Source of the DNA: Azonexus hydrophilus
Lineage (GTDB): Bacteria; Pseudomonadota; Gammaproteobacteria; Burkholderiales; Rhodocyclaceae
Assembly (NCBI RefSeq): GCF_001956855.1
Contig: NZ_MTHD01000001.1
Location: 558,001-622,000, forward strand
DNA length: 64,000 nt
Direction of reading: 5' to 3'
Positions within the stretch are counted from its first letter, which is position 1. Every line of letters starts with the position of its first letter. Positions 48,694-64,000 of this stretch are shown here, one piece after another. Below the pieces are notes generated by a model. It had not been told where the DNA came from. It was given only the letters and a program-made list of their open reading frames with translations, and made no database searches. A program made the translations under genes and the position numbers.

Positions 48694-49161
48694 ATGGCAT
48701 CGGTCAACAAGGCAATCATCGTCGGTAATCTGGGCAAGGACCCGGAAGTCCGCTACACCGCCAGCGGCGAGGCAATGTGCAACATCACCGTGGCCACCAG
48801 CGAAAGCTGGAAGGACAAGGCAACCGGCGAAAAGAAGGAACTGACCGAATGGCACCGCATTTCGTTCTTCGGCAAGCTGGCTGAAATCTGCGGTCAGTAC
48901 CTGAAGAAGGGTTCGCAGGTTTATGTCGAGGGCAGCATCCGCACCCGCAAATGGACTGACAAGGACGGTCAGGAGCGCTACACCACCGAGATTCGTGGTG
49001 ACGAAATGAAGATGCTCGGCTCGCGCCAGGGCATGGGCTCGCCGGCTTCTTCCGGTGGTGGCGGTGGCGGCTATGACGAGCCGACCGATTACGCGCCGGC
49101 GCCGCCGAAGAATCGTCCGAAACCCTCCTTCGACGATCTGGGCGACGACATCCCGTTCTAG
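48694..49161 (+). CDS. ssb: Single-stranded DNA-binding protein
   Basis: This is an essential replication/repair protein. The 155-residue product has the OB-fold start [39 protein letters not shown] and [19 protein letters not shown] Gly-rich linker follows, then the acidic partner-binding tip [15 protein letters not shown] precedes the ATG. It is the last core gene before the base-composition change; its own terminator at 49,211 is intact. Confidence 0.98.
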
Positions 49162-49317: not shown

Positions 49318-50640
49318 ATGCATTCATCTCCTCGAATTTCACAATTTTCTGACGGTGAGCGCTTCCCATACCTAGAGGATCAGGATGGGCTTATGAGTCT
49401 ATGGCCGACGCTGTTTACGATTGCTGAGTCAAGGAAAACCAAAGAAGCGAACACGATTCGCAATGAGTTGGCTGCAATTTCTCATCTTCGTATTTGGGAA
49501 TGCTTACACAAGCGAAACCTGCTTGATGAGATTGCTAATCAACAGTTTCCCACTGAAGGTGACATCTTAAGTCTGAGGGATCACTGCTATTCCGATGCTC
49601 GTGACCTAAAAAGCTACATGGACAGGGTCAAGTCGATGCCTAGCAACGCGATTGCGCTTATTGCGCCGATCCAAATGATTTCGTTGCAGACAGTTGAACA
49701 AAGCCATGCGTATAACCGCATCACGACCGTTGGGAAGTTTTTGTACTTCTGTGCATTGGCAATTTTTCGCGGGCGCCCAAATGTTGGAGAACTTAACGCG
49801 CGTGCCAAAGCAATGCGTGAAGCCGTGCTAGCGCAACGGCCAAAAGGAAAAACTAACAGATCTGGATTGGCAGTACATCCATTCCCACAACACTTCGATG
49901 AGTTCATGGCAGTCGTTGCTGAAGGTTCGCCTGATAACCCGTTCAAATCGGAAAAAATACGTCACCGAAATTTTACGATGCTCAGAATACTCTTTGAGAC
50001 GGGAATGAGGTCTGGGGAGTTGCTGTCTCTGTATGTTGGTGACGTGACCTATGATGACCACGGTGATCCGATCGTTCGGATCGTCGATAGACGTGATGAT
50101 CCAAATGATCCACGCATAAATCCGCCTCAGGTAAAAACCTTGGAGCGAGAATTGCCAATTAGCCATGAGCTATACGAAAAACTTCAGCACTACATCTCTG
50201 CTGTGCGGTTTTACACGCCCAATGCAAGGACTCACCCATTGCTGTTCGTCAATCATAGGGGTGGGGAGTATCAGGGTTCTCCAATGACTGACAAGAATTT
50301 TCAGCTTGAGGTGAAACGAGTTGTTGCTGTTCGTCCCGATCGATTCAAAGACATACGCCGACATGGATTTCGTCACAATTTCAATGTTCACCTCACTGAT
50401 AAGTTGGATATTTATTCAGCACAGGGAAAACCCCTCTCCGATAAGGAAAGGCTTGATATCCGGAAGACTCTGAACGGCCACAAAGGTGATGGCTCCGGGG
50501 ATGTCTACGAAAGAAATGCGACTCGTGCCAAGGCAATGAAGGCGATGTCGGGGTTCCAGGGTAAGCAGGCTGCTGTGCTGAAAGAGGCCCTGACACAAGC
50601 GAAACAAGGAAAGGGGATAGTGGACGATGACGACATTTAA
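49318..50640 (+). CDS. Tyrosine recombinase 1 of the trio
   Basis: The 440-residue integrase is AT-richer than the core genes. Catalytic-domain motifs are ETGMRSGELLSLYVGDV (box I Arg near 231), RRHGFRHNFNVHL (His/Arg box near 347-353), and NGHKGDGSGDVYERNA (His near 388, nucleophile Tyr near 397). The N-terminal 200 residues would be the arm/core-binding domain. A ribosome site AAGG precedes the ATG at 49318. It overlaps the next recombinase gene by 14 bases. It could correspond to the first integrase of gamma-mobile-trio-type islands; this is by architecture only. Confidence 0.88.
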   Translation: MHSSPRISQFSDGERFPYLEDQDGLMSLWPTLFTIAESRKTKEANTIRNELAAISHLRIWECLHKRNLLDEIANQQFPTEGDILSLRDHCYSDARDLKSYMDRVKSMPSNAIALIAPIQMISLQTVEQSHAYNRITTVGKFLYFCALAIFRGRPNVGELNARAKAMREAVLAQRPKGKTNRSGLAVHPFPQHFDEFMAVVAEGSPDNPFKSEKIRHRNFTMLRILFETGMRSGELLSLYVGDVTYDDHGDPIVRIVDRRDDPNDPRINPPQVKTLERELPISHELYEKLQHYISAVRFYTPNARTHPLLFVNHRGGEYQGSPMTDKNFQLEVKRVVAVRPDRFKDIRRHGFRHNFNVHLTDKLDIYSAQGKPLSDKERLDIRKTLNGHKGDGSGDVYERNATRAKAMKAMSGFQGKQAAVLKEALTQAKQGKGIVDDDDI

Positions 50641-52189
50641 ACTGGAGGGAGATTTAAATGCCAAATCGGTGCTGCGAAAATCAACAGCGGGTTACGAGTT
50701 TGATGAAACTAGTGATGAATGGAGGCTTGATGGGTCTATTCAGTTAAAGCTCAGTATCTTGTCGGAATTAGGGCTTGGGCAAAAGGCGTCCGCTGGGTTC
50801 CGAAAAACACTGTCTCGTTATGCGCAGGAACTATCCTCCTGCCATTGCCAAAATATCTATTATCGAATTCTGCACTTCTTCAGGACTACAGGCGTCAAAG
50901 AATTTTCTGCGGAAGCCTTATCCAGCTATCGCGCAAGTTTGGATGACGAGCACATTTGGTACTTGGGCGTTATAAGAGGTTTTCTGGACAGTTGGAGCGA
51001 GTATGGATTTCCAGGTGTTTCAAGGAAAACAATCAATTATCTCGACGGGCTGACAATAAAAGGAAACGTTAAGGGTGTTGCCGTACTGACTAGTTGCCCA
51101 TACTCCGGCCCCTACACTTCGCAAGAGCACCTCTCGCTATTGTGTGGCTTGGCGAATGCCTATGAATCAAGAGAGTTGTCCCAGGAGGGTTACAGTTTCC
51201 TGTTGGCTGTGAGCATGACCGGAAGACGGCCTGTGCAGATCCGTCATCTGAAATTGTGCGATCTTGGCTTTACGGACAATGACGGTTCGCGCTCCTGTTA
51301 CTTGGATATTCCAAGGGCCAAGCAGCGGGGGCAGAGTGTTTTCCGAAAAGAGTTTAAGCGCATCACGATTTGCAAGGATCTCTATGATGCGCTGAACGAC
51401 CAACGAAACGATGTCATTTCTTGGGTGAGGCGCACTTTCGAAAGCCAAAATGCTGACGTGGAGTCATTGCTTCCTCTTTTTCCTGAACATAGTCGACTAG
51501 GGGAATGCGCCCTCACCGAGATATCGTCCTATCTAAACACAGATTACCTGCACAAAACTTCGGCTTCTGTGCGTAGCCTGAGGATAAAACTCAATTCCGT
51601 AGTAAATGCACATAGCGAGCGTACGGGAGGGCCTTTGATCATCGGGTTCACTCGCTTGCGCAGAACCTTTGCGTCGAACTTGGCGGCTGAAGGATTTGGG
51701 CCGTTGGTTTTAGCTGAAGCGCTTGATCATAGCGATACGCAACAGGTTCCTGTGTATGCACGACCGGAAAATGAAACGGCGAAGGTGGTGGACGAGGTAA
51801 TGGCTCGGGTCTTGGCACCTCTGGCCATGGCCTTTGCCGGCAAATTGCTGGACTCTGAAAGAGACGCGGTGAGAGGGGGTGATCCTCACAGCAGAGTAAA
51901 GCTGAAAACTGAGATTGGCATTGGAAATTGTGGAAGTTTTCGGTTTTGTGCGGACGGTTGGAAAGGTTGTTACCTGTGCAAGAGCTTTCAGCCATGGCTC
52001 GACGGGCCTCATCAGAGTGCGTTGGATGAGTTGCTCAAGGAGAGGCAGATACAGAAAGACGCCAAGGTATCCCAAGTGATTATCGGTGCGTCGGACAGAG
52101 TTCTGTTGGCGATAACCCAGGTTATTCAAATGTGCGCAGCCAGGAAGGCTGAGTTGCAAGTGATTGAGGGGGTGAACTGTTATGAGTAA
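50627..52189 (+). CDS. Tyrosine recombinase 2 of the trio, Cys-containing tail
   Basis: The 520-residue integrase has box I AVSMTGRRPVQIRHLKL (Arg near 200), box II GFTRLRRTFASNLAAEG (about 339-355), and LAEALDHSDTQQVPVYARP with His near 369 and Tyr near 377. After the catalytic domain comes a roughly 140-residue tail with four Cys (IGNCGSFRFCADGWKGCYLCKSF, about 436-458) that could bind zinc. An AAGGAAAGGGG ribosome site lies inside the end of recombinase 1. It overlaps recombinase 3 by 8 bases. Confidence 0.86.
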   Translation: MTTFKLEGDLNAKSVLRKSTAGYEFDETSDEWRLDGSIQLKLSILSELGLGQKASAGFRKTLSRYAQELSSCHCQNIYYRILHFFRTTGVKEFSAEALSSYRASLDDEHIWYLGVIRGFLDSWSEYGFPGVSRKTINYLDGLTIKGNVKGVAVLTSCPYSGPYTSQEHLSLLCGLANAYESRELSQEGYSFLLAVSMTGRRPVQIRHLKLCDLGFTDNDGSRSCYLDIPRAKQRGQSVFRKEFKRITICKDLYDALNDQRNDVISWVRRTFESQNADVESLLPLFPEHSRLGECALTEISSYLNTDYLHKTSASVRSLRIKLNSVVNAHSERTGGPLIIGFTRLRRTFASNLAAEGFGPLVLAEALDHSDTQQVPVYARPENETAKVVDEVMARVLAPLAMAFAGKLLDSERDAVRGGDPHSRVKLKTEIGIGNCGSFRFCADGWKGCYLCKSFQPWLDGPHQSALDELLKERQIQKDAKVSQVIIGASDRVLLAITQVIQMCAARKAELQVIEGVNCYE

Positions 52190-54308
52190 TGTCGTCACCT
52201 TTATTCCAGCCACTGCTGATGATCCTGAGCGGAACCTCGCCGATTTCGTGGCTTACTGTCGAGATACGCTTGCGCTTTATGAAGATCAAGGGGGATTCGC
52301 TGTCGATCAATGGATATACACCGATAGCAATGGTAAAAAACATGCGATGCGGTTCGCGCAATATTCCGCGAAAACTGACACATACAATTACGTTCCCTTT
52401 TCCGAGCCTTATCTAAGCTTTGCCAAAGGTTACGTTAGGTTTCACCAAGAGCAGCAGCAGAAGACCTCAATCGGAAATAAGACATCTGTACTTGCGACAA
52501 TCTACGATGCATTGCGAGAACTTAGTCGCCCACTCGATATTCTCGACCTTGATGGGGTTGTGGTTGAAAGAAGCGCTGAGCTGATCCGTGAGCGTAACTC
52601 GGAGGCGAGGTGTTATCACATCGGGAATGAGCTGGAAATACTCTGTAATTTCTTGCGCGACAAATGCATTTGTCCTTCTTTGCCGGTTTGGAAAAATCCG
52701 TACTCTCGTCAGCCCTACAGGGCGCAAGGTACCAGCAAAGACGATAGGGAATGGCAGGAGGAGCGCTGCCCAAGCATTCATCAAATGCTCGCATTGGCGG
52801 ACATTTTCCGCTTGGCAGCGGAAGAAAAAGATCTTTATTGGTCTTCGGTCATCGTGCTGCTAATGTTTGCGCCGGGTCGTGGTAGCGAACCCAGTTCTCT
52901 TATGATTGATAGCTTGATCGAAGAGGATGGGCGACTTAAGGTACTTTGGTACGCCAAAAAGAAGGCGGAATGGACAAAAAAAATTGTTCCGATTCAGATG
53001 GAACCTGTGGTGCGTGAAGCGTTTGCACGGCTTACCAAAATAGGAGAACCTGCAAGGGAAGCAGCTAAGTTCGCGTTCGAGAATTCGGGTAAGTTTTTAC
53101 GCCATCCAGATTGTATTACGCCACCCGATTTCGATGAGGATGGCCCTCTAGATGTGCTGGAATTTACCTGCGCAATGAATTTTAATGAAGTTACTATTAA
53201 TAAACTTAAGCTCCGTGAAGACGAGGGAAAAAGTCTTTCCGACAATGGCGCTTGGTCCAAGATTAATGCGGATGCGACCAAGTGGATTACACATTTGCGT
53301 GCCTCGGGGCCGGTGACTTACCGGAAACTGGCTGAGCACACCTTGGCTAAGTACCGCACTATCAGTTGGCCGAACATACCTAAAACAAATCGACCTGTTA
53401 GCGATTCATTATTGCTTGTGCTCGATAGGCAGTTTTATACCGACCGTTTGCCGGTTAGATTTAGTTGGGTGATTCCTAACATCAACGCATTGAATGACGA
53501 ACTTGGCGGCAGAGATTTCAAGGAATCCAAAGATGGAAGCTGGGTTCGGAAGACGTCAATTTTTGAGCGGTTTGGCAAGCTGGACGAGGATGGCAAGACC
53601 CCAATTGAGCTTACCAGCCATCAGCTGAGGGTCTGGCTGTCAACTTGGGCTGAGCGTGGCGGCATGAGCGAGTGGCAAATCGCACAATGGGCCGGTAGGG
53701 CTCGAATCGATGACAATAAAGCCTATGACCTCAGAACGAGGGAGGAAAAGCACGAAGCTGCAAAGGCTGTTCTTCGGTTTAATAAGGCACCAACTGCCAT
53801 CGAAGCCGTTCGGCTAAATTTACCTGTGACCTATGAGTCCTTAGGCGTTGATCGTCCTGGTGTCGCCCACGCCACACTATATGGATACTGTGTCAAGGAT
53901 TGGGCAATGGCCCCCTGCATGAAAGGGGGGGGCGAAGCCTGCCCCGGCTGCGATGATCACAAATGTATTAAGGGGCTCGATGATAAGCTCGAAAATCTTG
54001 AGTCTCTAGAAGCTGGAATGACTAGAGAGCTATCTCGCGCAGCGCAGGAATTGGATGTTAAGACTTTCGGTGCAAATAATTGGTACCGCTTTCTAGGATT
54101 CCGTTTAGCAAAAATCAGAACCATAATCTCGCGATTAAAGGACTCGGATACACCGGTTGGAGCAATTATAGGGGTTCCTCCAGAGCTAGACCCCAGCCCA
54201 CTTCAGCGCGCAAGGTCAACGGTGATTCAGGGGGCTTCAGTGGCAGATCAACAATCCGTTCTAACCGCGTCGACAAAAAAATTCTTGGGATGGAGTCGCA
54301 ATGCCTAA
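52182..54308 (+). CDS. Large tyrosine recombinase 3 of the trio (VPA1269/GmtZ-like architecture)
   Basis: The 708-residue protein has integrase boxes FAPGRGSEPSSLMIDSL (Arg near 232), LTSHQLRVWLSTWAERGG (about 476-493), and IAQWAGRARIDDNKAYDLRT with Tyr near 515. An insert of over 200 residues separates box I and box II. The C-terminal tail has a Cys/His cluster (APCMKGG, then EACPGCDDHKC, about 576-593) followed by a helical segment. The preceding gene ends in a GAGGGGG ribosome site. The Cys codons come right after a run of eight G (53925-53932). Naming to the VPA1269/GmtZ group is inference from size and layout. Confidence 0.8.
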   Translation: MSNVVTFIPATADDPERNLADFVAYCRDTLALYEDQGGFAVDQWIYTDSNGKKHAMRFAQYSAKTDTYNYVPFSEPYLSFAKGYVRFHQEQQQKTSIGNKTSVLATIYDALRELSRPLDILDLDGVVVERSAELIRERNSEARCYHIGNELEILCNFLRDKCICPSLPVWKNPYSRQPYRAQGTSKDDREWQEERCPSIHQMLALADIFRLAAEEKDLYWSSVIVLLMFAPGRGSEPSSLMIDSLIEEDGRLKVLWYAKKKAEWTKKIVPIQMEPVVREAFARLTKIGEPAREAAKFAFENSGKFLRHPDCITPPDFDEDGPLDVLEFTCAMNFNEVTINKLKLREDEGKSLSDNGAWSKINADATKWITHLRASGPVTYRKLAEHTLAKYRTISWPNIPKTNRPVSDSLLLVLDRQFYTDRLPVRFSWVIPNINALNDELGGRDFKESKDGSWVRKTSIFERFGKLDEDGKTPIELTSHQLRVWLSTWAERGGMSEWQIAQWAGRARIDDNKAYDLRTREEKHEAAKAVLRFNKAPTAIEAVRLNLPVTYESLGVDRPGVAHATLYGYCVKDWAMAPCMKGGGEACPGCDDHKCIKGLDDKLENLESLEAGMTRELSRAAQELDVKTFGANNWYRFLGFRLAKIRTIISRLKDSDTPVGAIIGVPPELDPSPLQRARSTVIQGASVADQQSVLTASTKKFLGWSRNA

Positions 54309-54726
54309 GAAGATAGTCACGAAAGAAAGCATAGACCAGTTGCTGGCCATTTTGAACAACTGGCAAGGCGATCTTACTTGGGAGCTCTACTGCGAATGCG
54401 TCACCAGCAAGCTCGGCCTCGAAAGGGTAGTCACCAAGCAAACCTTTCTTCGTTACGAGATCATAAAGAAGGCGTTCGCCGATCGTAAAGCGTTTCTGCG
54501 TGAGGCAAAGTCTTCGACAGAATCAAGCGATCATACTATTGCTTCGTATCAAACACAGGTCAAAAATCTCGCTGAGCAGGTTAGGCGCTTATCGGAAGAA
54601 AACCGCGCTTACAAAGAAAAATTTGTACGCTGGCTAAGTGTTATTTATCAGAATGCCCCCTCGTTCGATCTGTCCAAATTGGATATTCCACTAACGGCGA
54701 AGCATAAGCACAGCCGGGAAATGTAG
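54301..54726 (+). CDS. Small coiled-coil accessory protein of the recombinase operon
   Basis: The 141-residue protein, of no family I can name with certainty, has a basic N-terminus (MPKKIVTKESIDQLLAILNNW). A helix-turn-helix-like middle (LGLERVVTKQTFLRYEIIKKAF, about 40-61) and a heptad coiled coil (YQTQVKNLAEQVRRLSEENRAYKEKF, about 82-107) follow. In position and form it recalls Tn554 TnpC or the X component of trio islands, small proteins that aid recombinase action. The ATG overlaps the recombinase 3 stop region by 8 bases. Confidence 0.72.
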   Translation: MPKKIVTKESIDQLLAILNNWQGDLTWELYCECVTSKLGLERVVTKQTFLRYEIIKKAFADRKAFLREAKSSTESSDHTIASYQTQVKNLAEQVRRLSEENRAYKEKFVRWLSVIYQNAPSFDLSKLDIPLTAKHKHSREM

Positions 54727-54728
54727 TG

Positions 54729-55214
54729 ATGGCCGGCAAGAAAAAAAAGCAGTTGCGGAATGAAAACTACGATGGCTTAAGTGGCGCACAGATCGGCCAG
54801 AAAAAGCTCGAAGAATTTGAAGCCTGGGTGGCTGAGATTGAACACGCAGAATCGATGGCTCACTGGAAAGGCAAATTCGCAGGTACGGCAAGCAGGGAAA
54901 AGATTGCTATCGAAGGACTCGGTTGGAAAAACAAAAACCCTTTTCATCAAAATGATCGGCTCAAAAAGGCCATGAGTCTGGTTGAGAAAAAGTGGTTTGG
55001 TGGGCCAAATTCGCGCAGAGTCGAAAGCGTCAATGCGGCGCTTGATCGTTCTCAGAAGGATGTCCAAGGCACATCAGCCGATGCCAATCGCTTGGCAAGC
55101 AAGGTCAGCGAATTAGAGGCCGAAGTTAGGATGTTGAGAAAGATTGTGCGTTCTTTTGAAGAACAGAGTCACCTTGTTGCCATGGGTTTGCCGGGATTCA
55201 TGCTGCCAAAATGA
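54729..55214 (+). CDS. Small basic, coiled-coil protein of the recombinase operon
   Basis: This 161-residue protein is unrecognised. It has a Lys-rich start (MAGKKKKQLRNENYDGL), a helical middle (GQKKLEEFEAWVAEIEHAESMAHWKGKF), a predicted globular segment with KWFGGPNSRRVESVNAAL, then a C-terminal coiled coil (SKVSELEAEVRMLRKIVRSFEEQ, about 122-144). The ATG at 54729 is preferred over the GTG 3 bases earlier. Its stop overlaps the helicase start (ATGA). It may be a DNA-binding or helicase-loading partner, which is inference. Confidence 0.7.
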   Translation: MAGKKKKQLRNENYDGLSGAQIGQKKLEEFEAWVAEIEHAESMAHWKGKFAGTASREKIAIEGLGWKNKNPFHQNDRLKKAMSLVEKKWFGGPNSRRVESVNAALDRSQKDVQGTSADANRLASKVSELEAEVRMLRKIVRSFEEQSHLVAMGLPGFMLPK

Positions 55215-57490
55215 ACGGCAATGCAACGTTGATGGCAAGGATCTACCACGTCGGTACTCAGGTGCAGGTAGGCAAGCGAATTCGTAAAGGCGGCCGTTAC
55301 GCATTGGTTTCGACCATCAATCGAGATGGTTCTATACGTCCTTCCCCTTCTCCTTTGCCACTGGTCGTAAGATTTCCCGAGTCTGACATGGGGCTTGTTG
55401 CACCAGGGACGGTTTGGCTGGTGGATGGGCCGGAAGTCATTAGCAGCTATGTGCATGCCGGTGACCGGCGTTATGAACGAACTATCGAGGCCACGACGGC
55501 GACATTCGTTAAACCGACAGGCCAGACCTTGGCTCGCTGGTTACAACAAAACGTTACGGGTATCGGCGATGTCCTCTCGAATAGGCTGGTCAGGAATAAA
55601 CATCTTGCGAAGTGGGTTGAGGCAGAGGATCGAGAATCGCTGCTGGGCATTCAGGGTATGTCTGATACGACAGTGGATGCGCTCTTGCAGAGCTGGCCGT
55701 CAACTGAGTTGTTTAAGGTGATTACGTTTCTTGACGAGCACTCGATCCCTCTTGGTATCGCTAAGTCGATCATAAACGCGTTGAATGAGGAAGCGCTCCC
55801 TCTACTCCAGGAGAATCCATTCATGCTGCTTGGACAAGGAGTGCCTTTTAAGAAGGTGGCCGAATTCGCCACGAAAATGGGCTTCAACATCAACGATCCG
55901 CAGTACGTAGGTGGCATTGCGGCACATGTGGCCTTTGTGCATTCGGAGGAAACTGGCTCTACGGTGATTGACTCAGCAACATTGCACCGGAATGCAGAGC
56001 TTCTGATGCAACGCTCGGTGCCTGATGGCCTCGGTGATACAGCGGTAAATCAGGGCCTTATGGTCAAGTGTGGTGAAGCTGCCTATCAAGTTTACGGATG
56101 TGCCTTGATGGAGCATGAAGTGGCGGATTTTATGCTCAAAGCATTGTTACGGGCGCCGGGGGAAGGTGCTGCTCAGGCAGCGTGGTGGGAAACCCAAATT
56201 GACCGCAGGAGCGTTGAGAGAGCACTGCAACGATACGAAGCTCACTTCCTCAACTTTCAACTTCTACCAGAGCAACGGGAAGCCGTTATTGGTTCGGTGC
56301 TGGCCCCGGTATGTGGCATTAGTGGTGGCGCCGGTACCGGGAAAACCACCATTCTTCGGGCCGTCTTGGGATGTTATCAGCAGCTAGCGTCGGAACTCCC
56401 TTCGTATCAAGTGGCGGTAGCTGGTCGGGCTGCACAGAGAATGGCCGAAAGTACCGGCAAACCTGCGCAGACGATCGCTAAGTTCATTGCAGAACACATG
56501 GGCGACGGAAAGCCTGAGCTGCCAGATCATTTGTTGCTGATCATTGATGAAGCGTCAATGTTGGATCTGCTGAGCATGTACAGGCTTGTTCGCTTCTTGC
56601 CACATGCAGCAAGAATTATCTTTGTCGGTGATTCTATGCAGATTCTTCCGGTAGGAAAGGGCTTAATCTTCCATGCGATCCAAGATTCAGGGGTGCCGTT
56701 CTTTGAACTGAAACAGGTCATGCGGCAAGATGAGCAAAGCGGTATTCACCGCTTAGCAACCGACCTGAGAAATGGGATTGTTACGCTTCCTCCGGCAGCG
56801 GCAACTCGCTTGTTGGACTGCGCTGATTGCTCATTGGATGAATCAACCGATCCGAATCGCTTGGCCGAGTTGTGGCGGGAGGCGGGAGGGATCGGTGCCG
56901 TGATGATTTTGTGTCCAGTTAAGTCGGGTCCGCTCGGGGTCGATAACATTAATGTCATATTGCAACGTACTGTTGGACTTGAGCGGCCGCAGTTGTATTA
57001 CCAAGATTCCGAACGGAGGCGTCAGCCGTGGGTCACAAATGACGGCTTGCGGTTGTTATTGGGTGACCCGGTGCTGGTTACCCAGAATAATTATGACGTT
57101 GACGCAGACGTTCGAAACGGAGACTTGGGCATTCTGGAGAACATCACAGACCCCCTGACGGATTCTGAATTCTTCGGAGTGCTAAGGATGGGCGACGGCA
57201 GAGCAATTGAAGTAAACCTCGACTTGCTTGGCAAGTTGAGTCTCGGCTACGCCGTAACTGTGCATAAGAGTCAAGGTAGCCAGTGGCCAACGTGTTTCAT
57301 AACCCTTCCGAGAAACGCATCAAGAATGATTGACCAGTCCCTACTGTATACCGCCGTTACACGGGCGCAGAAGCGCGCTCTGCTATTTGGTGATCCTCGG
57401 CTAATTGAAATTGGGATAGCTAGAGGGCCTGCGAGCCTTGAGCGGCTGACAACTTTAGCAAAGCGGATTCAGTACATGGCAAGCCTTTGA
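55211..57490 (+). CDS. RecD2-like SF1B helicase of the recombinase operon
   Basis: This 759-residue 5'-3' helicase has helix-hairpin-helix segments in the N-terminal third (GIGDVLSNRL, then GIQGMSDTTVDALLQSW, about 117-160), as in RecD2. Walker A is GGAGTGKTTILRAVL near 371-385 and motif II is LLIIDEASMLDLL near 441. It also has FVGDSMQILPVG, motif V-like VHKSQGSQWPT near 684, and YTAVTRAQKRALLFGD near 712. It probably helps process DNA during excision or replication of the element. It ends the six-gene unit and converges with the OLD-type gene 45 bases away. Confidence 0.87.
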   Translation: MNGNATLMARIYHVGTQVQVGKRIRKGGRYALVSTINRDGSIRPSPSPLPLVVRFPESDMGLVAPGTVWLVDGPEVISSYVHAGDRRYERTIEATTATFVKPTGQTLARWLQQNVTGIGDVLSNRLVRNKHLAKWVEAEDRESLLGIQGMSDTTVDALLQSWPSTELFKVITFLDEHSIPLGIAKSIINALNEEALPLLQENPFMLLGQGVPFKKVAEFATKMGFNINDPQYVGGIAAHVAFVHSEETGSTVIDSATLHRNAELLMQRSVPDGLGDTAVNQGLMVKCGEAAYQVYGCALMEHEVADFMLKALLRAPGEGAAQAAWWETQIDRRSVERALQRYEAHFLNFQLLPEQREAVIGSVLAPVCGISGGAGTGKTTILRAVLGCYQQLASELPSYQVAVAGRAAQRMAESTGKPAQTIAKFIAEHMGDGKPELPDHLLLIIDEASMLDLLSMYRLVRFLPHAARIIFVGDSMQILPVGKGLIFHAIQDSGVPFFELKQVMRQDEQSGIHRLATDLRNGIVTLPPAAATRLLDCADCSLDESTDPNRLAELWREAGGIGAVMILCPVKSGPLGVDNINVILQRTVGLERPQLYYQDSERRRQPWVTNDGLRLLLGDPVLVTQNNYDVDADVRNGDLGILENITDPLTDSEFFGVLRMGDGRAIEVNLDLLGKLSLGYAVTVHKSQGSQWPTCFITLPRNASRMIDQSLLYTAVTRAQKRALLFGDPRLIEIGIARGPASLERLTTLAKRIQYMASL

Positions 57491-57535: not shown

Positions 57536-59563
57536 TTAGCCTGCGAATGGCCGTGTATCCCTTGTGACTTGCGTAAACAGGCGACCATTGATCACCCCAA
57601 ACAATGCCTCGAACTGCGCTAGGCTCTGTTCTGACAAGATATTCTCTGGCTCCGATGCCATCTTCTTGAGGAGCAAGCGAGTGGGCCGGGTCTTGTGGAA
57701 TGGAATGCCAATTTCGCCCAAAGCAATATCAATGCGCTTTGCAATTCGTGGAATATTTGCGTTAAGTGTCAGGGTTTTGCCCTTCAGTTCTGCCTTGTAG
57801 CTTTCGCGCACCAAAGCCTCATAAGCAGCAGGATCAAACAGGTCTTCGATGTCCGCCTCGTTCGGTTGAGACGAGAACGCCTCTGCCACGAAGACGACGT
57901 TCTGGTCCCGAATTAGTTTCGCCTTCAAAAGCTCATCTTTGGTGGCCTTTGAATCGCGCTCTGAGTCGAGAAGCACCAGTACGTTAAGTGACTCTGATGT
58001 CAGCAATGCAACCATATATGAAACTTTTTGAGCTCCACCTGCGGGCGTCATCGTTAGGTCGGCCCTGAGTGCAGTCCTTCCTTTTTCTGAAAGGTAAGCA
58101 CTCACAGCGCTCAATATCCAGAAATCTGTAACGCCCTCGATTACGAGATTGTTTGGCCCAATAAAAAGGCTCTGTGCGAGATCGTAGCCAAGTGCTGCTT
58201 GAAGTGGGAACAGCGTTCTCGCGTCGCCAGTCGGATCGTTGGTAACGGTTGTGCCAGTTTCTTCAGCGATGTTGACGGTACGTACCGAGTCTAGCGCGTG
58301 GGTCGGCACCATGAATGGCGAGTGTGTCGAGTAGAGAATCTGGTTGGTGTAATCGTTCTCAAAGTGATGAAGTAGATCCGTTTGGGACTTCGCGTGTAGA
58401 TATAAGCCGGGTTCATCTAACAGGATGACTGCGTTCTCTGCATGCCCACCATCGGTATCGGCAGAGAAAGTGATGTAGAAAGCAAAGAACCACTGGAATC
58501 CGCGACTTCTATCGTTGAGATTGACCTCGACGTCGTAAGTGCTGGTTGGATCAGAGATGATCGTGTCCAAATGGTGAGCATCAAGATTGAAGCGAATCTT
58601 AAGTGCTCTATCCTTCCACAACCGTTTTATTTCTGATGTAACTACTGCGCTGGCTCGGTTCGCTAGTTGATTGCGGGTCTCGTGTTCGTTCTGACCGAGC
58701 AACGTCTGGAGTTCGTCTGGTTTAAGCCCGGCTACCTTGCAGAGTTTTTCAAAGTTTTTGTCCCACTCGTTCCGCTGGTTCTGAGATTTCCGCTGAATGT
58801 AAGCAGCAATATCTTGATGACCACTGAGTTCTGGATATTCATCTACATAAATAAACTTGGGGATGGCACCTAAAGCCCAGATCCGTGCATTTTTCTGGGC
58901 TTCCTTGTCGCCTGAAATGCTTTCAGCTAACTCCTCAAGTTCCGAGAAAATCTCTTCCTGTTTCTCTGTTAACTCAGCATCTGCTCCGGCAAGGGCTGTC
59001 CGCAGGGCCTTAGCGGCCGGAGTGAACTGAGTTGCCCATGTGTCGCGTACCTTTGAGGCAGATGCGGCCGCTTCGAAAGCATCGGCTGCGGCATCTAGTA
59101 CAGCAGGAGTCTCGTGCTTCTGGGCTAAGGCGCGAACCGATGCCGCGACCTTCTTAACGGAGGTCTTGATTTCTCCATCCTCGAACGAAATCGGCTTCAG
59201 CTCAGGGAAGCCAACGGTTCTGGTTTCTCCCTGATAGCTCCGACTAACGGTTACTTTCGATACATCGGTTGCACGCGGAAGAATTTCGAGTAGATTTTCT
59301 TTGTCGTCGTCGTCCAGCACCCATGTCGTCGAAACAACAGGAGTGCCATCCGTACACTCTTCGAGACGCCTGTGCCGAGGGAAATCCTTGATTGGTTTCA
59401 GCGGCTCAAAGCCATCAATCGGGTTCAGGCTATGGAGAGCTCGCAATAGGTTTGACTTGCCGCTTTCGTTTCTGCCCAAGAGCGCAGTAATTCGAGATAC
59501 GGAAATTTCTCCACTGTCATTGATGGAGCGATAGTTTTGTACTTGAAATGACTCTAGCCTCAT
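57536..59563 (-). CDS. OLD-family ATPase with TOPRIM nuclease domain
   Basis: The 675-residue protein has an SMC/ABC-like ATPase (MRLESFQVQNYRSINDSGE, Walker A GRNESGKSNLL at 30-40, Walker B/D-loop ILLDEPGLYLHAK near 380). It includes an insertion with a helical coiled-coil segment (about 130-220). A TOPRIM domain follows, with the metal-binding Glu in NNLVIEGVTDFW near 474 and Asp/Glu in VLLDSERDSK near 531. OLD nucleases act in phage defence and exclusion. ATG 59563 is chosen; a TTG 18 bases upstream is possible. It stands alone, convergent to the RecD-like gene; no UvrD-type partner is present. Confidence 0.86.
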   Translation of the reverse strand: MRLESFQVQNYRSINDSGEISVSRITALLGRNESGKSNLLRALHSLNPIDGFEPLKPIKDFPRHRRLEECTDGTPVVSTTWVLDDDDKENLLEILPRATDVSKVTVSRSYQGETRTVGFPELKPISFEDGEIKTSVKKVAASVRALAQKHETPAVLDAAADAFEAAASASKVRDTWATQFTPAAKALRTALAGADAELTEKQEEIFSELEELAESISGDKEAQKNARIWALGAIPKFIYVDEYPELSGHQDIAAYIQRKSQNQRNEWDKNFEKLCKVAGLKPDELQTLLGQNEHETRNQLANRASAVVTSEIKRLWKDRALKIRFNLDAHHLDTIISDPTSTYDVEVNLNDRSRGFQWFFAFYITFSADTDGGHAENAVILLDEPGLYLHAKSQTDLLHHFENDYTNQILYSTHSPFMVPTHALDSVRTVNIAEETGTTVTNDPTGDARTLFPLQAALGYDLAQSLFIGPNNLVIEGVTDFWILSAVSAYLSEKGRTALRADLTMTPAGGAQKVSYMVALLTSESLNVLVLLDSERDSKATKDELLKAKLIRDQNVVFVAEAFSSQPNEADIEDLFDPAAYEALVRESYKAELKGKTLTLNANIPRIAKRIDIALGEIGIPFHKTRPTRLLLKKMASEPENILSEQSLAQFEALFGVINGRLFTQVTRDTRPFAG

Positions 59564-60123
59564 GGCTTCCCCATGTCCCAAAATTTAGCGATTAGTAATG
59601 CTATATGATTTGTAGGTGAACGAGTGCCGCAGTTGGTGCATCGAAGGCGCTTCAATAGATTTAACAACCGATTTTTGCTGTGAACTCAACCTAGCCCGGC
59701 TCGGCGAAGCCGAACGAGCCAGGAGGCAAGCGAGAGTAGCGGAGCGCGGCAGGTGCGATTGGTTTAAAGTACGTGTTTTCCGGTGCTTGGCACTAAACCA
59801 ATATGAAACCAGCCCATGGCAATCAAGAAATCCGAACTTTATTCATCCCTCTGTGTCTAGTAAAGCCGGGCCGATTCAGTGCAAGAGTTCTCTGATTGGA
59901 GAGGCACCATTTCTTTGGCCTGAGTTGCTTAAAGTATCTTGCCTCCTCCCACCTGTTTTGGTCGGCATCCTTGTGTTGCTAAAGTCCGCCTGATCAGAGG
60001 TGGCGGCGTCGTAATAATGCCCAAAGCGCTATTCCGAACCTGGATGTGTGTGCAAGAAGTCTTGACGTGTGATCTTTTGGCTTCCAAAATTCATTCAAGC
60101 GGACTGACAGCCGATTGTCCTTG
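59564..60123. other. Gene-poor stretch with two short hairpins
   Basis: About 560 bases contain no ORF I trust. A 125-codon plus-strand frame (59616-59993) has no recognisable domain. Two inverted repeats stand out: GGCTCGGC (59698-59705) facing GCCGAACGAGCC (59709-59720), and GGTTTA (59761-59766) facing TAAACC (59794-59799) with an inner GTGC-TTG-GCAC hairpin. The region may hold an upstream promoter of the OLD gene on the minus strand. Nothing else is supported. Confidence 0.4.
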
Positions 60124-60295
60124 AGGCATCGTGCCGGCAGTTACGGCGAGAGGGTGAGCCTTTTCGTGAGAAGAAGCAGCACCGCAAGGATGCCCAAAGC
60201 AGCTGCTCACCGCCATTCGTGGTCCCACCCGGAGTGGGAGAAGAGTACCTTGTGACGTAACGCCAAGAGGCCCCTTGTTTGGGGCCTCTTCTTTT
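60124..60295 (+). ncRNA. Candidate structured RNA with possible pseudoknot and terminator
   Basis: Several pairings can be read directly. GGTGAGC (60153-60159) pairs with GCTCACC (60205-60211), extended by GGC (60145-60147) with GCC (60212-60214). GGCATC (60125-60130) pairs with GATGCC (60189-60194) and crosses the first helix, as in an H-type pseudoknot. TCCCAC (60223-60228) pairs with GTGGGA (60234-60239) around CCGGA. The segment ends in a strong terminator. No convincing ORF spans it. This suggests a roughly 170-nt independent small RNA, or a 5'-leader attenuator for the ATPase gene 330 bases downstream. The class is not recognised. Confidence 0.5.
60265..60295 (+). terminator. Strong terminator closing the candidate RNA
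   Basis: AAGAGGCCCC (60265-60274) pairs perfectly over 10 bp with GGGGCCTCTT (60281-60290) around TTGTTT. CTTTT follows on the plus strand. There is no T-run on the minus strand. Confidence 0.8.
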
Positions 60296-60334
60296 GCTGC
60301 GAGCAAAATACTCCTGAGCCTCACAAATCGATAG

Positions 60335-60584
60335 GCCAGAGACGTTCCGTCAGACTCCTCTGTAGTTGCGAATACTAATTTGTACGTTGATCGGCGTGAC
60401 GAGATTCCGAATGGTTTAGGAGCTGCTACCGACAAAATGTATGCGGTTCATGTCCAACTGGTCGCCAAGTTAAACCAGCAGTTTGGCTCGCCAATGTGGC
60501 GCCTCAATCGGGGCCTGCCCGTAACCTGAGCTTCGAGGCAGAACTCATGCGGCGACTTGTCGAGGAAGGCATTGTTCATGATGT
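60335..60584 (+). pseudogene. Decayed coding fragment, unknown family
   Basis: From an in-frame stop at 60332-60334, a plus-strand frame without a start codon reads a protein-like segment (ANTNLYVDRRDEIPNGLG, AATDKMYAVHVQLVAKLNQQ, FGSPMWRLN) to a stop at 60527-60529. An adjacent frame continues with SFEAELMRRLVEEGIVHDV to a TGA at about 60585. Composition looks like coding sequence, broken by a frameshift and lacking its 5' end. I cannot assign a family. It may be the remnant of an older island gene. Confidence 0.35.
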
Positions 60585-60626
60585 ATGATTACGTGTTTAA
60601 TTCGGCAAGGCTTAGGGTTCCCGAAC

Positions 60627-62561
60627 ATGATCGCCGGAATATTCCTCAGATACATCAAGACCTATCGCGGCTACAACTACATCCCACTCGTCAGCGATGA
60701 CAGGTTCTGCGGACTTGTCGGGAACAACGGGATAGGCAAGAGTTCCATTCTCGAAGCCCTAGATGCCCTGTTCAACGACAAGCAACTGAACCTGAACATC
60801 GTCACCAAGCGGAGCGGATTCTCCGAGACCAATCCGCATGTGGTTCCGGTGTTCCTCGTGCGTCGGGAAGACTTTTCCGGAAACCTTGCCGCACTGGCGG
60901 ATACCCTGAATACGTTGGCGATGGGCATCGCCGAATCCGATGTTCCTATAGGGAGTCCCAAAAACCAAATCCGCAAGTTCATCCAGCACCGGACCATGCT
61001 GGCAGCGGCTTTCTCGATGGATGAGTATTATCTCCTCCCTCTCGGAATCGACCGGAACCATGTGGTCGCACTGAGCCTGTTCAATTGCAGGAAATTGGTG
61101 GAGCTTCGACTCGGAGCGGAAACGGAAGCGTCGGTAACAGCCCTCGATGAGTCTCAACTGAGGGAATTCACGCCGCTGCTCGATAAGATCAAGTCATCGA
61201 CCGACTACATCTATATCCCCAAAGAAATCGACTCGGATGCCTTCACCAAGCTTGAAACGAAGGAAATTCAGTCGCTGATGGGGGAGAGCCTGAACCAGAT
61301 CATCGAGAATCTGGTTTCCGGAGATGTGGTGCGAAACATCAACACCAGCCTGAACAGCTTCCTTGACAATCTTTCGACCGAACTTGTCGACTACTCCTAC
61401 CGGACACGGACCGACCGGCAGCAGAACCTGAAAAAGCAGGATGTTTACAACCTCATCGTCCAAGCGTTCTTTAACATCCGCATGCTGCACAAGCAGCAAT
61501 CCGGTGGCGCATGGCTTGAAATCAACTCCCTGAGTTCGGGAGAAAAGCAGAAGGCGATCATTGATGTCGCCCACAGCCTGATCAAGAACCATCGCACGAG
61601 CGGCGAAAACCTCATCCTCGCCGTTGATGAGCCCGAATCTTCTTTGCATATGTCGGCTTGCTTCGACCAGTTCGCGGCTCTGTACGAAATCAGTCGGTCC
61701 TGCCGCCAGTTGCTGTTCGCTACGCACTGGTACGGGTTCTTTCCGACCATCGAATCCGGCAGCGCAGCGGTCATCACCAATACAGGCGATGAACATGTCG
61801 TCGACCTAATCAATCTCGCCAACCACAGGGAGCAGGTCAGGCAATTGGCCAGGGGAACCAAGGGGACGCTGCCCTACGACGTCAGGCTCAAGAGCATCAA
61901 CGACTTCGTCCAGTCCATCATAACGAGCGCCATCGCCAGTGAACCCTACAACTGGCTCATCTGCGAGGGCAGTTCCGAAAAGGTGTACCTGTCCGCCTAT
62001 CTGAAGGACCTGATTGACGAAAAGCGTCTCCGTATCATTCCGGTGGGCGGAGCGAAGGAAGTGAAGCGTCTCTACCAGCATCTCTCGGTTTCCTACGAGG
62101 AATTCAAGGAGGAGGTGAAGGGGAAAATCTATCTCCTCTCCGACACCGATGCCGAGCTGGTCCAGTACGAAGTCAGGAGTTTCGACAACCTGCTTTGTCG
62201 CCGGATGGTGACCGATAAGGCGACAAGGTCCGTTTCGCTGGTCAATATCACTTCGAATCCGGTTTCGCCGAAGACCGAAATCGAGGATGTCCTCAACGGA
62301 AAGCTCTTCTACGACACCCTGAGGACGTTCCTTCCCGACAATCCGGGTCTCGAATTCCTGAACGATTATGAAGATGCGACCGAGGAGCCTACCTTCTTCG
62401 CACTCGACCTGAGGGATAGCGAGCGGACGGCGATCGAGCAGTTCTTCGATACGGGGAACAACAAGTTCATCTTCTCCGAAATATACATTTCAGGACTCAC
62501 GCCTGAACATGTGGTTCCGGGCTGGATTACAACGATAAGGGGGTGGCTTGTCGAGCCGTAG
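60627..62561 (+). CDS. AAA ATPase with C-terminal TOPRIM-like domain (OLD-like)
   Basis: The 644-residue protein has FLRYIKTYRGYNYIPL, Walker A GLVGNNGIGKSSILEALDAL near 32-51, a signature-like INSLSSGEKQKAIIDVAHSL near 296, and Walker B LILAVDEPESSLHMSA near 330. It also has the H-motif FATHWYG. A TOPRIM-like C-terminus follows, with Glu in LICEGSSEKVYLSAYL near 446 and Asp pair in YLLSDTDAELVQYE near 504. The ATG at 60627 matches the start of the ATPase fold; an ATG at 60585 is upstream. Its GC content is higher than the recombinase operon. Anti-phage function is likely by family but unproven. Confidence 0.82.
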   Translation: MIAGIFLRYIKTYRGYNYIPLVSDDRFCGLVGNNGIGKSSILEALDALFNDKQLNLNIVTKRSGFSETNPHVVPVFLVRREDFSGNLAALADTLNTLAMGIAESDVPIGSPKNQIRKFIQHRTMLAAAFSMDEYYLLPLGIDRNHVVALSLFNCRKLVELRLGAETEASVTALDESQLREFTPLLDKIKSSTDYIYIPKEIDSDAFTKLETKEIQSLMGESLNQIIENLVSGDVVRNINTSLNSFLDNLSTELVDYSYRTRTDRQQNLKKQDVYNLIVQAFFNIRMLHKQQSGGAWLEINSLSSGEKQKAIIDVAHSLIKNHRTSGENLILAVDEPESSLHMSACFDQFAALYEISRSCRQLLFATHWYGFFPTIESGSAAVITNTGDEHVVDLINLANHREQVRQLARGTKGTLPYDVRLKSINDFVQSIITSAIASEPYNWLICEGSSEKVYLSAYLKDLIDEKRLRIIPVGGAKEVKRLYQHLSVSYEEFKEEVKGKIYLLSDTDAELVQYEVRSFDNLLCRRMVTDKATRSVSLVNITSNPVSPKTEIEDVLNGKLFYDTLRTFLPDNPGLEFLNDYEDATEEPTFFALDLRDSERTAIEQFFDTGNNKFIFSEIYISGLTPEHVVPGWITTIRGWLVEP

Positions 62562-62574
62562 CCCGGATCAGGGG

Positions 62575-62796
62575 CTATCGCGTAAAACCCAGCAACTCGA
62601 AGTAATCATTACGGAATGACGGAACGTCTTCATTCCGTGACTCCATCTCAGTCGCTTCCAGGGGTAGGGAAGGCGAGAAATCCAATACGTTCCCAAGTCC
62701 CTTGGCCCTGGTCAAGGCAGCATCCTTGTCCGATGCTTCGACGCATGCGATGGGCTTTCCCCCTTGGGAGACGAGAAACGACCTGATTCCGTTCAT
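62575..62796 (-). CDS. 73-residue partner of the restriction endonuclease gene
   Basis: This small protein, of no recognised family, begins MNGIRSFLVSQGGKPIACVEA and ends FRNDYFELLGFTR, with an acidic middle. Its ATG overlaps the endonuclease stop (ATGA), so it is translated from the same message. It converges with the ATPase gene, whose stop is 13 bases away. Size and coupling would suit an accessory or regulatory subunit; that is only a guess. Confidence 0.6.
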   Translation of the reverse strand: MNGIRSFLVSQGGKPIACVEASDKDAALTRAKGLGNVLDFSPSLPLEATEMESRNEDVPSFRNDYFELLGFTR

Positions 62797-64000
62797 TGCC
62801 TTCCTTTTACGAGACCGATGAACTCGGTCAGATTCATTAGCCAGCCACGCTGCGCCGGAGTGTATGAAGAGTGTAGCGCCGTGGGAAGGACGAGCGACAG
62901 CTTCTTGTCCCTCATCTCGTCGGTCTGAGCCGTGGAGATGCTGGGTTCCATGGTCAGGAGGTGCTTCTCTTCTACCCTGTCTGCCTCCACCAGAACCTGA
63001 CGCCAACGATCCTTGCACGTCGATTTGACGCCGAGCATGGTCAGCCGCTCAGGAGGGAAAGCCGGATTCCGGTATTCATCGATGCTCGGGAAGATGAAGT
63101 CGGGCTTGGATTTGTTCTCCGTAACCTTGGTGCGGTCGTACCTGACGCCGAGCTTGAGGAAGACTTCTTCGAGATGGTTCTCGAACGCGCTCCCGACGCG
63201 GCTCTTTCTGCGATTCTGGACGGAAAGCGAGAAAGCGAGGAATCCATCCACGTCATGAGCGAAGCCCTCGACCAGACGGTCTCCGACGATGTGGCGTTCG
63301 AGGGTGCGGAAAAGAACTTCCTCCCTGTCCATCCATGCAAGAAGCACGGCATCCGGATCGTCGCGCGGGTCCAGGTCATCGATGGTGCTGCGGGCGAAGT
63401 CCGAGAAGATTCTCGTCGAAGGGAATCGCTTGCCGAACCTGTCGAGCATGATGTCGAGGAAGTTTGGCGCTTCCTCTTCCTGTGCGACCCCGATTTCATC
63501 AAGGATGAGCCGTGAGGCGAATTCGAGTTTGACCTGGTCGGATTCGGTTTCCGCCTTCACCGAGAAGCCCGGATGCACGAGGTCAGAGAATCCGAAAAGC
63601 CACCTGACCTGATTGGCGACCGTCGATTCCGCCTCGGCAACGACGACGAGAACGGAACCGTCCTGACGCCTGCCGATGAGCAGCAAATCACCTTCGGCGG
63701 CGCAATTGGAGACTTCTGTCGTCGGGAAGTATAGGCGATGCTCGGAGCGCGTCGGATGGGCTTCCCTAGCGTCGTACCACGTCAGGAAGCCCTCCGAAAT
63801 AACGGGTTCGTCGTCATGGTCCGTCAGGTAGATGAACTTCGCATCAAACTTCTGCTTTCCCACCGCCTGTCCGAAGAGCTTCTTCAAGCCATCGACACCG
63901 TTGAATTCGTGCTGATGCGATCTGACGAGGTCGGCTTCGACCGCGCTCAGCGTCTTCAACGCTACGCCGGAGAAGAACTCGGAGAGATAGCCGCTTTTCA
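62793..64000 (-). CDS. EcoRII-family type II restriction endonuclease, start at window edge
   Basis: The C-terminal EcoRII catalytic domain is clear: KPDFIFPSIDEYRNPAF with the catalytic Asp, then MLGVKSTCKDRWRQVLVEAD (PD-(D/E)xK variant), KHLLTMEPSISTAQTDEM, and TPAQRGWLMNLTEFI. The N-terminal part reads KSGYLSEFFSGVALKTLSAVEAD then SHQHEFNGVDGLKKLFG, as in EcoRII/PspGI-type enzymes. A TTG at 63959 is not needed: the frame stays open to the edge, where the codon at 63999-64001 ends in TG and is probably the start. About 402 residues are visible. EcoRII relatives cut CCWGG; specificity here is untested. Confidence 0.85.
   Translation of the reverse strand, partial: KSGYLSEFFSGVALKTLSAVEADLVRSHQHEFNGVDGLKKLFGQAVGKQKFDAKFIYLTDHDDEPVISEGFLTWYDAREAHPTRSEHRLYFPTTEVSNCAAEGDLLLIGRRQDGSVLVVVAEAESTVANQVRWLFGFSDLVHPGFSVKAETESDQVKLEFASRLILDEIGVAQEEEAPNFLDIMLDRFGKRFPSTRIFSDFARSTIDDLDPRDDPDAVLLAWMDREEVLFRTLERHIVGDRLVEGFAHDVDGFLAFSLSVQNRRKSRVGSAFENHLEEVFLKLGVRYDRTKVTENKSKPDFIFPSIDEYRNPAFPPERLTMLGVKSTCKDRWRQVLVEADRVEEKHLLTMEPSISTAQTDEMRDKKLSLVLPTALHSSYTPAQRGWLMNLTEFIGLVKGRQ

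What the first reader, a model, noticed from the sequence alone, without database searches (positions are those of the whole stretch)
49318..57490. Six-gene coupled unit: three unlike tyrosine recombinases, two small proteins and a RecD2-like helicase
Seen: three integrases of 440, 520 and 708 residues, each with its own Arg/His-Arg/Tyr catalytic boxes, overlapping by 14 and 8 bases. Two small proteins and a helicase follow with overlaps or 2-4 base spacing. Known: Tn554-type elements, RIT elements and gamma-mobile-trio islands use several tyrosine recombinases at once. Inference: this is the movement module of a large island in a Betaproteobacterium, with a dedicated helicase as a fixed sixth part. 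The helicase and second small protein inside the same translational unit make it a candidate for a distinct, little-described subtype.
Basis: partly seen in the sequence, partly recalled or inferred. Interest (0 to 1): 0.75.

Follow-up and report, generated by a model that had tools for sequence, protein, structure and literature searches.

The report
GInt island with a swappable helicase pair
This is the movement operon of a known kind of bacterial genomic island (a GInt, with three recombinases), here joined to a two-gene helper (a small protein and a RecD2-like helicase) that related islands share with an unrelated kind of mobile element, as if it were a plug-in part.

Summary
The six genes are real. 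Genes 1-4 are the ginABCD operon of a GInt (Genomic Island with three Integrases) at the 3' end of ssb, a common GInt site. Six empty relatives map the island to 49153-69418 in window coordinates (20.3 kb), so its right end lies outside the window. Genes 5-6 are not a fixed part: 6 of 29 GInts not chosen for them carry the pair. They are a divergent copy of the VPA1267-family/RecD2-like pair that is annotated behind gamma-mobile-trio (GMT) recombinases. In 79 loci found with the small protein as probe, the helicase follows in 73; upstream are GMT genes in 45 and GInt genes in 19. Helicases of GInts and GMTs interleave on a tree (at least 12 changes on 65 rows; one clade of GInt helicases rejected in a 31-row subset). 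In the closest GInt/GMT pairs DNA identity (up to 94%) begins at the small gene's start codon and ends about 25 bp past the helicase. So: a GInt plus a portable helper module shared by unrelated recombinase systems, probably acting on recombination or replication intermediates (inferred). The papers I could search do not describe this; the main GMT paper was not held.

The parts
49153..49159 (.). attL core CCGTTCT over the last codons of ssb; the partner copy (attR) is at 69419-69425 in window coordinates, outside the window (G000:C9:627419-627425)
   Evidence: DNA homology to six relatives stops at 49159-49160 and resumes at 69419-69462; five of the six empty sites read CCGTTCT, one CCGTTTT
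49318..50640 (+). ginA: tyrosine recombinase, 440 aa
   Evidence: Pfam Phage_integrase 50.8 bits; R231 K273 H349 R352 Y397 in 24 of 24
50627..52189 (+). ginB: tyrosine recombinase, 520 aa, with C-terminal Cys cluster
   Evidence: NCBIfam NF041502 524.7 bits, cut-off 350; R201 K232 R345 Y377 in 24 of 24
52182..54308 (+). ginC: long diverged tyrosine recombinase, 708 aa, with C570/C579/C587/C590 cluster
   Evidence: No Pfam hit; R233 K260 H480 R483 R506 Y515 conserved; profile matches XerA 4a8e, E 0.0065, Tyr to Tyr
54301..54726 (+). ginD: small protein with C-terminal coiled-coil-like region, 141 aa
   Evidence: 20-42% identity to ginD of other GInts, same place in operon
54726..55214 (+). gene E: divergent VPA1267-like small protein, 162 aa
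   Evidence: NF040697 21.3 bits, E 2.4e-4, nearly full length, below cut-off 90; E of five GInt relatives 122-196 bits, above cut-off
55211..57490 (+). gene F: RecD2-like SF1B helicase, 759 aa
   Evidence: TIGR01448 334 bits, cut-off 500; HHH_RecD2, AAA_30, UvrD_C_2 above cut-off; 31% to GMT helicases
57536..59581 (-). island cargo: OLD-like ATPase/TOPRIM nuclease
   Evidence: AAA_15 70 bits; PADLOC Old E 3.8e-23
60585..62561 (+). island cargo: second OLD-like ATPase
   Evidence: AAA_15 66 bits; PADLOC AriA/Old
62793..63959 (-). island cargo: EcoRII-type restriction endonuclease
   Evidence: EcoRII-C 236 bits; a C5 methylase and a Vsr gene follow in the island beyond the window

Best explanation
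A 20.3-kb GInt integrated at the 3' end of ssb. ginABCD carries out attL x attR recombination and integration (shown for another GInt in PMC5385486, inferred here). Genes E and F are an optional helper pair that can be joined to different recombinase suites (GInt, GMT, and at least one more multi-recombinase suite). E, a small protein with a coiled-coil-like end as in GinD, probably links the helicase to the recombinase-DNA complex. F, a RecD2-like helicase (expected from its family to move 5'-3'; recalled), probably unwinds the strand-exchange intermediate, so that the circular form is released or copied out and the donor restored. Shown here: island ends, gene families, conservation, module sharing and breakpoints. 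Inferred: the recruitment and unwinding steps.
For: GInt identity: gene order and 25-40% identity to four ginABCD operons lying behind ssb on plasmids; NF041502 above cut-off; empty/occupied comparison, 6 of 6 fetched relatives empty. Helper pair: E is followed by F in 73 of 79 loci, overlapping by 4 bp in 50 of those 73. Session HMMs find a GMT suite upstream in 45 (two of them, L072 and L101, with weak scores), GInt in 19, partial in 3, none in 12; of these last 15, 7 have Pfam integrases upstream, 1 has gmtYZX downstream, 2 have gmtX at the contig start. GInt-borne E proteins pass the VPA1267 cut-off in 5 of 5 tested. F tree: at least 12 GInt/GMT changes on 65 rows; on a 31-row careful tree 5 changes, one clade of GInt helicases rejected, p-AU 1.2e-74. 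GinC tree: E-F presence needs 9 changes on 43 rows. DNA identity in the closest GInt/GMT pairs starts at E's start codon and ends about 25 bp after F: L111 vs L100 94.1% over 2625 bp, L104 vs L115 89.5% over 2638 bp. Replication link: three of seven GInt strains gave circles but no empty site (PMC10214605 background; see also PMC5385486); B. subtilis YrrC, a RecD-type helicase, belongs to the SSB interactome (PMC3000357 passages).
Against: ginABCD alone sufficed for integration and excision of a synthetic GInt (PMC5385486), so E-F is not needed for recombination itself. E-F is absent from 23 of 29 unselected GInts, and VPA1267 is found in 47 plasmid records against 138 with gmtX. Four scan loci have E without F although 1.3-9.9 kb follow (L136, L145, L146, L148), and plasmid locus L069 has a short E and no F. 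E-F presence is clustered on the GinC tree (3 of 500 shuffles as low), so part of the pattern is plain inheritance. The window's own E and F are divergent (E below the family cut-off, F on a very long branch), so their function could have shifted. No functional data exist. F also matches defence-associated RecD models in PADLOC. VPaI-6, which carries this helicase (VPA1266; primer match), gave no circular form in a PCR test (PMC1464126).
Confidence: 0.68

Rival explanations
1. E-F is cargo, for example a defence or counter-defence pair, that happens to be inserted as the first cargo next to recombinase operons.
For: F matches PADLOC RecD_like, typeIV_RecD and PDC-S68 models; much of this island's other cargo is defence-like; GInt cargo is known to start directly at ginD (PMC5385486); E-F is optional.
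Against: It lies directly beside a recombinase suite in nearly all loci with enough flank, overlapping the gene before it in many, and is kept as one pair in many lineages. The genes that follow differ in the annotated examples seen. Only L083 (2 upstream ORFs run) and L088 (4 run) have flank and no recombinase found by Pfam. Defence contexts as such were not surveyed.
Confidence: 0.2
2. One reading: a distinct GInt subtype in which the helicase is a fixed sixth part.
For: Six-gene order in 19 other loci; on the GinC tree one supported clade of 8 rows all carries E-F, and presence is clustered, though these rows were found by having E.
Against: E-F presence changes at least 9 times on the GinC tree; close GinC relatives differ (L070 with, L026 without); the window's nearest GinC, L132, carries a GMT-type pair unlike the window's.
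Confidence: 0.08
3. The recombinases are decayed or paralogous leftovers and the arrangement is accidental.
For: Pfam misses C and scores B below its cut-off; one relative, L016, is broken up by frameshifts.
Against: Complete frames, catalytic residues conserved in 24 loci, precise island ends with target repeats.
Confidence: 0.04

Closest known systems
GInt (ginABCD islands; Bardaji et al. 2017, PMC5385486, parts 1-3 of 6 read)
   Same: Three tyrosine-recombinase-like proteins plus a small protein in one operon, insertion at the end of ssb, short imperfect flanking repeats, variable cargo.
   Different: Adds genes E and F behind ginD; neither 'helicase' nor 'recD' occurs in the paper's main text.
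Gamma-mobile-trio (GMT) elements, gmtY-gmtZ-gmtX then VPA1267 family protein and AAA family ATPase (annotation of AP029601.1 and NZ_CP036336.1; the gene there annotated 'integrase family protein', elsewhere 'VPA1269 family protein', is called gmtZ here from recall)
   Same: Genes E and F are the same families in the same order with the same tight spacing.
   Different: Recombinase suite is different; window ORFs fail the GmtY cut-off and show no GmtX hit. Primary paper (Mahata et al. 2024) not held, not read.
Strand-biased circularizing integrative elements (SE; PMC10214605 sections 3 part 1, 6, 12 and passages; PMC9345347 passages)
   Same: Several tyrosine recombinases plus a small coiled-coil protein; loci L093 and L142 with E-F have SE-like gene order and sizes.
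   Different: SE reference proteins were not held, so no direct comparison; PMC10214605 separates SE from GInt by sequence.
RecD2 helicase (TIGR01448)
   Same: HHH domain, SF1B motor, C-terminal UvrD-like domain.
   Different: 334 bits against a cut-off of 500; encoded in a mobile-element operon.

Membership tests
GInt | Operon of three integrase-like genes plus a small protein, in the order A-B-C-D | tested here: met
   No sequence of the original DSM 4166 element was available for direct comparison; transcription was not tested.
GInt | Integrated island with cargo at a specific site (ssb end is one of the known ones) | tested here: met
   Ends mapped against empty sites, 6 of 6 fetched relatives empty.
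GInt | Flanking imperfect direct repeats of 10-17 nt | tested here: inconclusive
   7-bp exact core CCGTTCT at both ends; no 10-mer with up to 2 mismatches spans the core.
GInt | Circular intermediate; all four gin genes essential | not testable with these tools
   Needs PCR and mutants.
GMT element | GmtY, GmtZ, GmtX | tested here: not met
   GmtY 39.6 bits against cut-off 340, no GmtX hit; against session HMMs of all three, the window ORFs score best with Gin models.
VPA1267 family (NF040697) | Curated cut-off 90 bits | tested here: not met
   Window E 21.3 bits; E of GInt loci L070, L104, L132, L077, L082 score 122-196.
RecD2 equivalog (TIGR01448) | Curated cut-off 500 bits | tested here: not met
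   334 bits; three other E-F helicases tested score 354-387, also below.
SE | intA-tfp-intB-srap homologues | not testable with these tools
   LC081338 and two guessed neighbouring accessions (AP024166, AP024168) are not held.
Tn554 / RIT | TnpABC or RIT recombinases | not tested
   No dedicated profile was run.

The most novel reading that the evidence does not exclude
E-F is a portable mobility adaptor that unrelated multi-recombinase elements (GInt, GMT, and probably SE-like and a further four-gene suite) acquire as a precise cassette of about 2.6 kb, and that turns cut-and-paste recombination into helicase-driven copy-out. The recombinase suite and the replication/unwinding helper would then be interchangeable parts of one modular class. 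In addition GinC would be a third catalytically competent recombinase, against the published view.
Probability: 0.35. Interest if true: 0.82.

Novelty: new variant of a known kind. Interest (0 to 1): 0.62.

Why it matters
GInts and GMTs carry defence, resistance and competition genes between bacteria, but how they move, and why they need several recombinases, is unresolved. A helicase pair shared by both makes one open question directly testable: is movement replicative, and does a dedicated helicase release or copy the element? It also links two element classes that are described separately, and gives a marker (VPA1267-type gene plus RecD2-like helicase) for finding more of them. The GinC residues question the published statements that it lacks the first arginine or the catalytic tyrosine.

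Tried and rejected
Searches with GinC and with F in viral contigs confirmed no relative. Window E as a tblastn query in plasmids gave nothing. The E profile in 369 class genomes hit only the window's own genome. The first genome-contig scan, with window E first, confirmed none of 134 stretches; the second, with a less divergent E first, confirmed 79 of 171. NF041502 in 399 order genomes rang in 222, nearly all at integrase-like scores under 45 bits; 2 (one the window's own) were over the cut-off. A possible conserved tail after F, as a cassette-end signal, was rejected: it occurs in only 13 of 87 loci scanned. L093's Tfp-like protein in plasmids: no match. hhalign of E against GinD gave probability 80 over 82 columns, much of it coiled coil, so common origin is not claimed. 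PHROGs gave only generic integrase and helicase families.

Rows dropped or labelled by hand: for the F tree I left out 13 truncated helicases, loci without F, L016 (frameshifted), three copies of one type (L095, L097, L098) and L027 (same as L070). I set L072 and L084 to GMT, and to 'other' twelve scan loci (L101 among them) and the plasmid loci L022, L062, L065. The 31 rows of the second tree were picked after seeing the first. In the prevalence count two loci cut off behind ginB/ginC (L201, L215) were set aside. Five of the 29 (L202, L205, L216, L217, L218) have weak GinC scores and no GinD hit, so they may not be GInts proper; L219, counted as carrying E-F, is also weak. Sample: 6 of 60 plasmid GinC records; all 5 same-genus matches; 4 of the 5 order matches with E under 1e-10 besides the window's own; 3 of 7 class matches; 13 of 15 family matches, G073 being already held and G1020 weak.
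Full report
OBSERVATION. The six + strand ORFs are present and coupled as described. Profiles give: A Phage_integrase; B NCBIfam NF041502 far above its cut-off, Pfam Phage_integrase just below its; C nothing in Pfam or NCBIfam, a weak integrase match in PHROGs (E 1.2e-4); D nothing specific; E a weak, nearly full-length match to the VPA1267 family (NF040697, 21.3 bits, cut-off 90); F RecD2-like. In 24 chosen GInt loci the catalytic residues are conserved: GinA R231, K273, H349, R352, Y397; GinB R201, K232, R345, Y377, with Thr in the window's B in place of the box II His; GinC R233, K260, H480 (23 of 24), R483, R506 (in the usual His/Trp place) and Y515. A GinC profile aligns its H-x-x-R and Tyr with those of XerA (4a8e, E 0.0065), and its box II to Tyr stretch with GinB. 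This disagrees with two papers: one says GinC lacks the first Arg (PMC5385486), the other that it lacks the catalytic residues or tyrosine (PMC10214605). No structure could be predicted.

ISLAND. Relatives' DNA homology stops at 49159-49160, in the last codons of ssb, and resumes at 69419-69462 in window coordinates. The ssb region was found in all 18 same-genus genomes searched besides the window's own; in the 6 that I fetched, ssb is followed directly by the gene that lies at 69.4 kb here. The core CCGTTCT stands at 49153-49159 and 69419-69425; the empty sites read CCGTTCT (five) or CCGTTTT (one). The element is therefore 20.3 kb, 51% G+C against 65% in the flanks, and only partly inside the window. 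Cargo: two OLD-like ATPases, an EcoRII-type endonuclease, a C5 methylase, Vsr and small genes.

GENES 1-4 ARE A GINT. The order, sizes, coupling and ssb site match GInts (PMC5385486; parts 1-3 of 6 read). Plasmid ginABCD operons behind ssb (L015, L017, L018, L019) are 25-40% identical gene by gene and have no E or F. An ssb gene lies upstream in 15 of 41 GInt loci tested: 6 of 22 with E-F, 9 of 19 without.

GENES 5-6 ARE A SHARED PAIR. In GMT operons the genes behind gmtY, an integrase gene and gmtX are annotated 'VPA1267 family protein' and 'AAA family ATPase', the latter 30% identical to F. A pattern scan of one genome each for 84,980 species with an E-family alignment gave 79 confirmed loci out of 171 stretches, a lower bound. 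E is followed by F in 73 of 79. Of the six misses two lie at contig ends (L144, L147); four have 1.3-9.9 kb of sequence and no F (L136, L145, L146, L148), three of these with a short E. Upstream, by session HMMs, are GMT genes in 45 (L072 and L101 weakly), GInt genes in 19, a partial suite in 3 and none in 12. Of those 15, seven have Pfam integrases upstream (L080, L093, L125, L128, L140, L142, L144); L136 has the same ORF sizes as L140 and was not run; L084 has gmtYZX downstream; L117 and L148 start at gmtX; L087 and L146 have under 1 kb upstream; L083 and L088 show no recombinase by Pfam in the ORFs run. E proteins of five GInt loci pass the VPA1267 cut-off.

SWAPPING. On a 65-row helicase tree GInt and GMT labels need at least 12 changes; starred branches alone force 9 for GInt and 10 for GMT. 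On a careful 31-row tree they need 5 (3 forced), and a single clade of the 8 GInt helicases is rejected (p-AU 1.2e-74). In the closest GInt/GMT pairs DNA identity runs from E's start codon to about 25-28 bp past F and not into the recombinases: L111 vs L100 94.1% over 2625 bp; L104 vs L115 89.5% over 2638 bp; L132 vs L113 77.3% over 2632 bp. L077 vs L076 (86.3%) begins 51 bp inside E and ends at the F stop. In the betaproteobacterial loci the edges are looser, from 74 bp before E (L071) to about 200 bp past F (L070, L079). Four of 20 GInt loci (L081, L082, L085, L086) gave no blastn match. In the GinC tree E-F presence needs 9 changes on 43 rows (8 forced) but is clustered (3 of 500 shuffles as low), one clade of 8 rows all carrying it; the E-F rows were mostly found by having E. 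The window's nearest GinC (L132) carries a GMT-type pair. The window's own F is on a long branch (3.6 changes per column), so its place is unsure.

HOW COMMON. Among 29 GInt loci not chosen for E-F, 6 carry it: 1 of 6 on plasmids, 1 of 5 in the genus, 0 of 3 in the order, 0 of 3 in the class, 4 of 12 in the family. In GMT it is optional too: gmtX is in 138 plasmid records (E 1e-5), VPA1267 in 47 (E 0.01) (non-independent records); L220 is an example without it.

MECHANISM. ginABCD alone performs recombination in a minimal GInt (PMC5385486), so E-F must add something else. Three of seven GInt strains gave circles without a detectable empty site (PMC10214605 background), and for the SE elements a copy-out from a single-strand bridge is thought most likely (PMC9345347 passages). 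A RecD2-like helicase is what such an intermediate would need, and B. subtilis YrrC, annotated as RecD and by my recall the RecD2 of that species, belongs to the SSB interactome (PMC3000357 passages). I therefore favour a helper that unwinds or loads replication on the strand-exchange intermediate, with E as adaptor. The helicase polarity and the adaptor role are inferred from the families, not tested.

LITERATURE. Searches for GInt, GMT, VPA1267, VPA1266 and helicase combinations (listings seen, not every paper opened) showed no account of this pair in GInts; 'VPA1267' occurs in no held paper. The primary GMT paper is cited in PMC12039261 (passages) but not held. VPA1266 of the old island VPaI-6 is very likely this helicase, since the published primer lies inside the F gene of L020 (PMC1464126 passages); circular forms were not detected there. 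PMC10121019 (passages) looks for GInts among E. coli mobile islands that carry defence systems; 'helicase' does not occur in its text.

Noticed in passing
L080, L125, L136, L140, L144; also L063 and L064 (Pseudomonas megaplasmids): A further multi-recombinase suite (about 660-790 aa, 640-709 aa integrase, about 320 aa, about 425 aa integrase; L144 starts inside it) also has E-F or an E-like gene beside it; no family name found.
   Followed up: partly
L093, L142: E-F behind a four-gene set whose order, sizes and domain pattern fit SE elements (integrase, about 740 aa without Pfam integrase, long integrase, small protein). Not compared with SE references.
   Followed up: partly
L084: E-F lies in front of gmtYZX instead of behind it.
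   Followed up: no
window 49159-49161: Insertion swaps the ssb stop codon: TGA at the empty sites of G002, G006, G009 and G017 (TAA in G003 and G018), TAG here with its last two bases from the island.
   Followed up: yes
window 57536-63959 and L028 1-5159: Cargo is defence-like: two OLD-like ATPases, EcoRII-type endonuclease, C5 methylase, Vsr.
   Followed up: partly
L067, L094, L097, L098: In Providencia a gene annotated as integron integrase (L067), or an ORF weakly matching the gmtY profile at the same spacing, lies directly behind the GMT E-F pair; P. rettgeri RB151 has three such loci on one chromosome.
   Followed up: no
window 52182-54308: GinC keeps the expected catalytic positions (Arg in the His/Trp place) and an invariant Cys cluster, against published descriptions.
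   Followed up: yes
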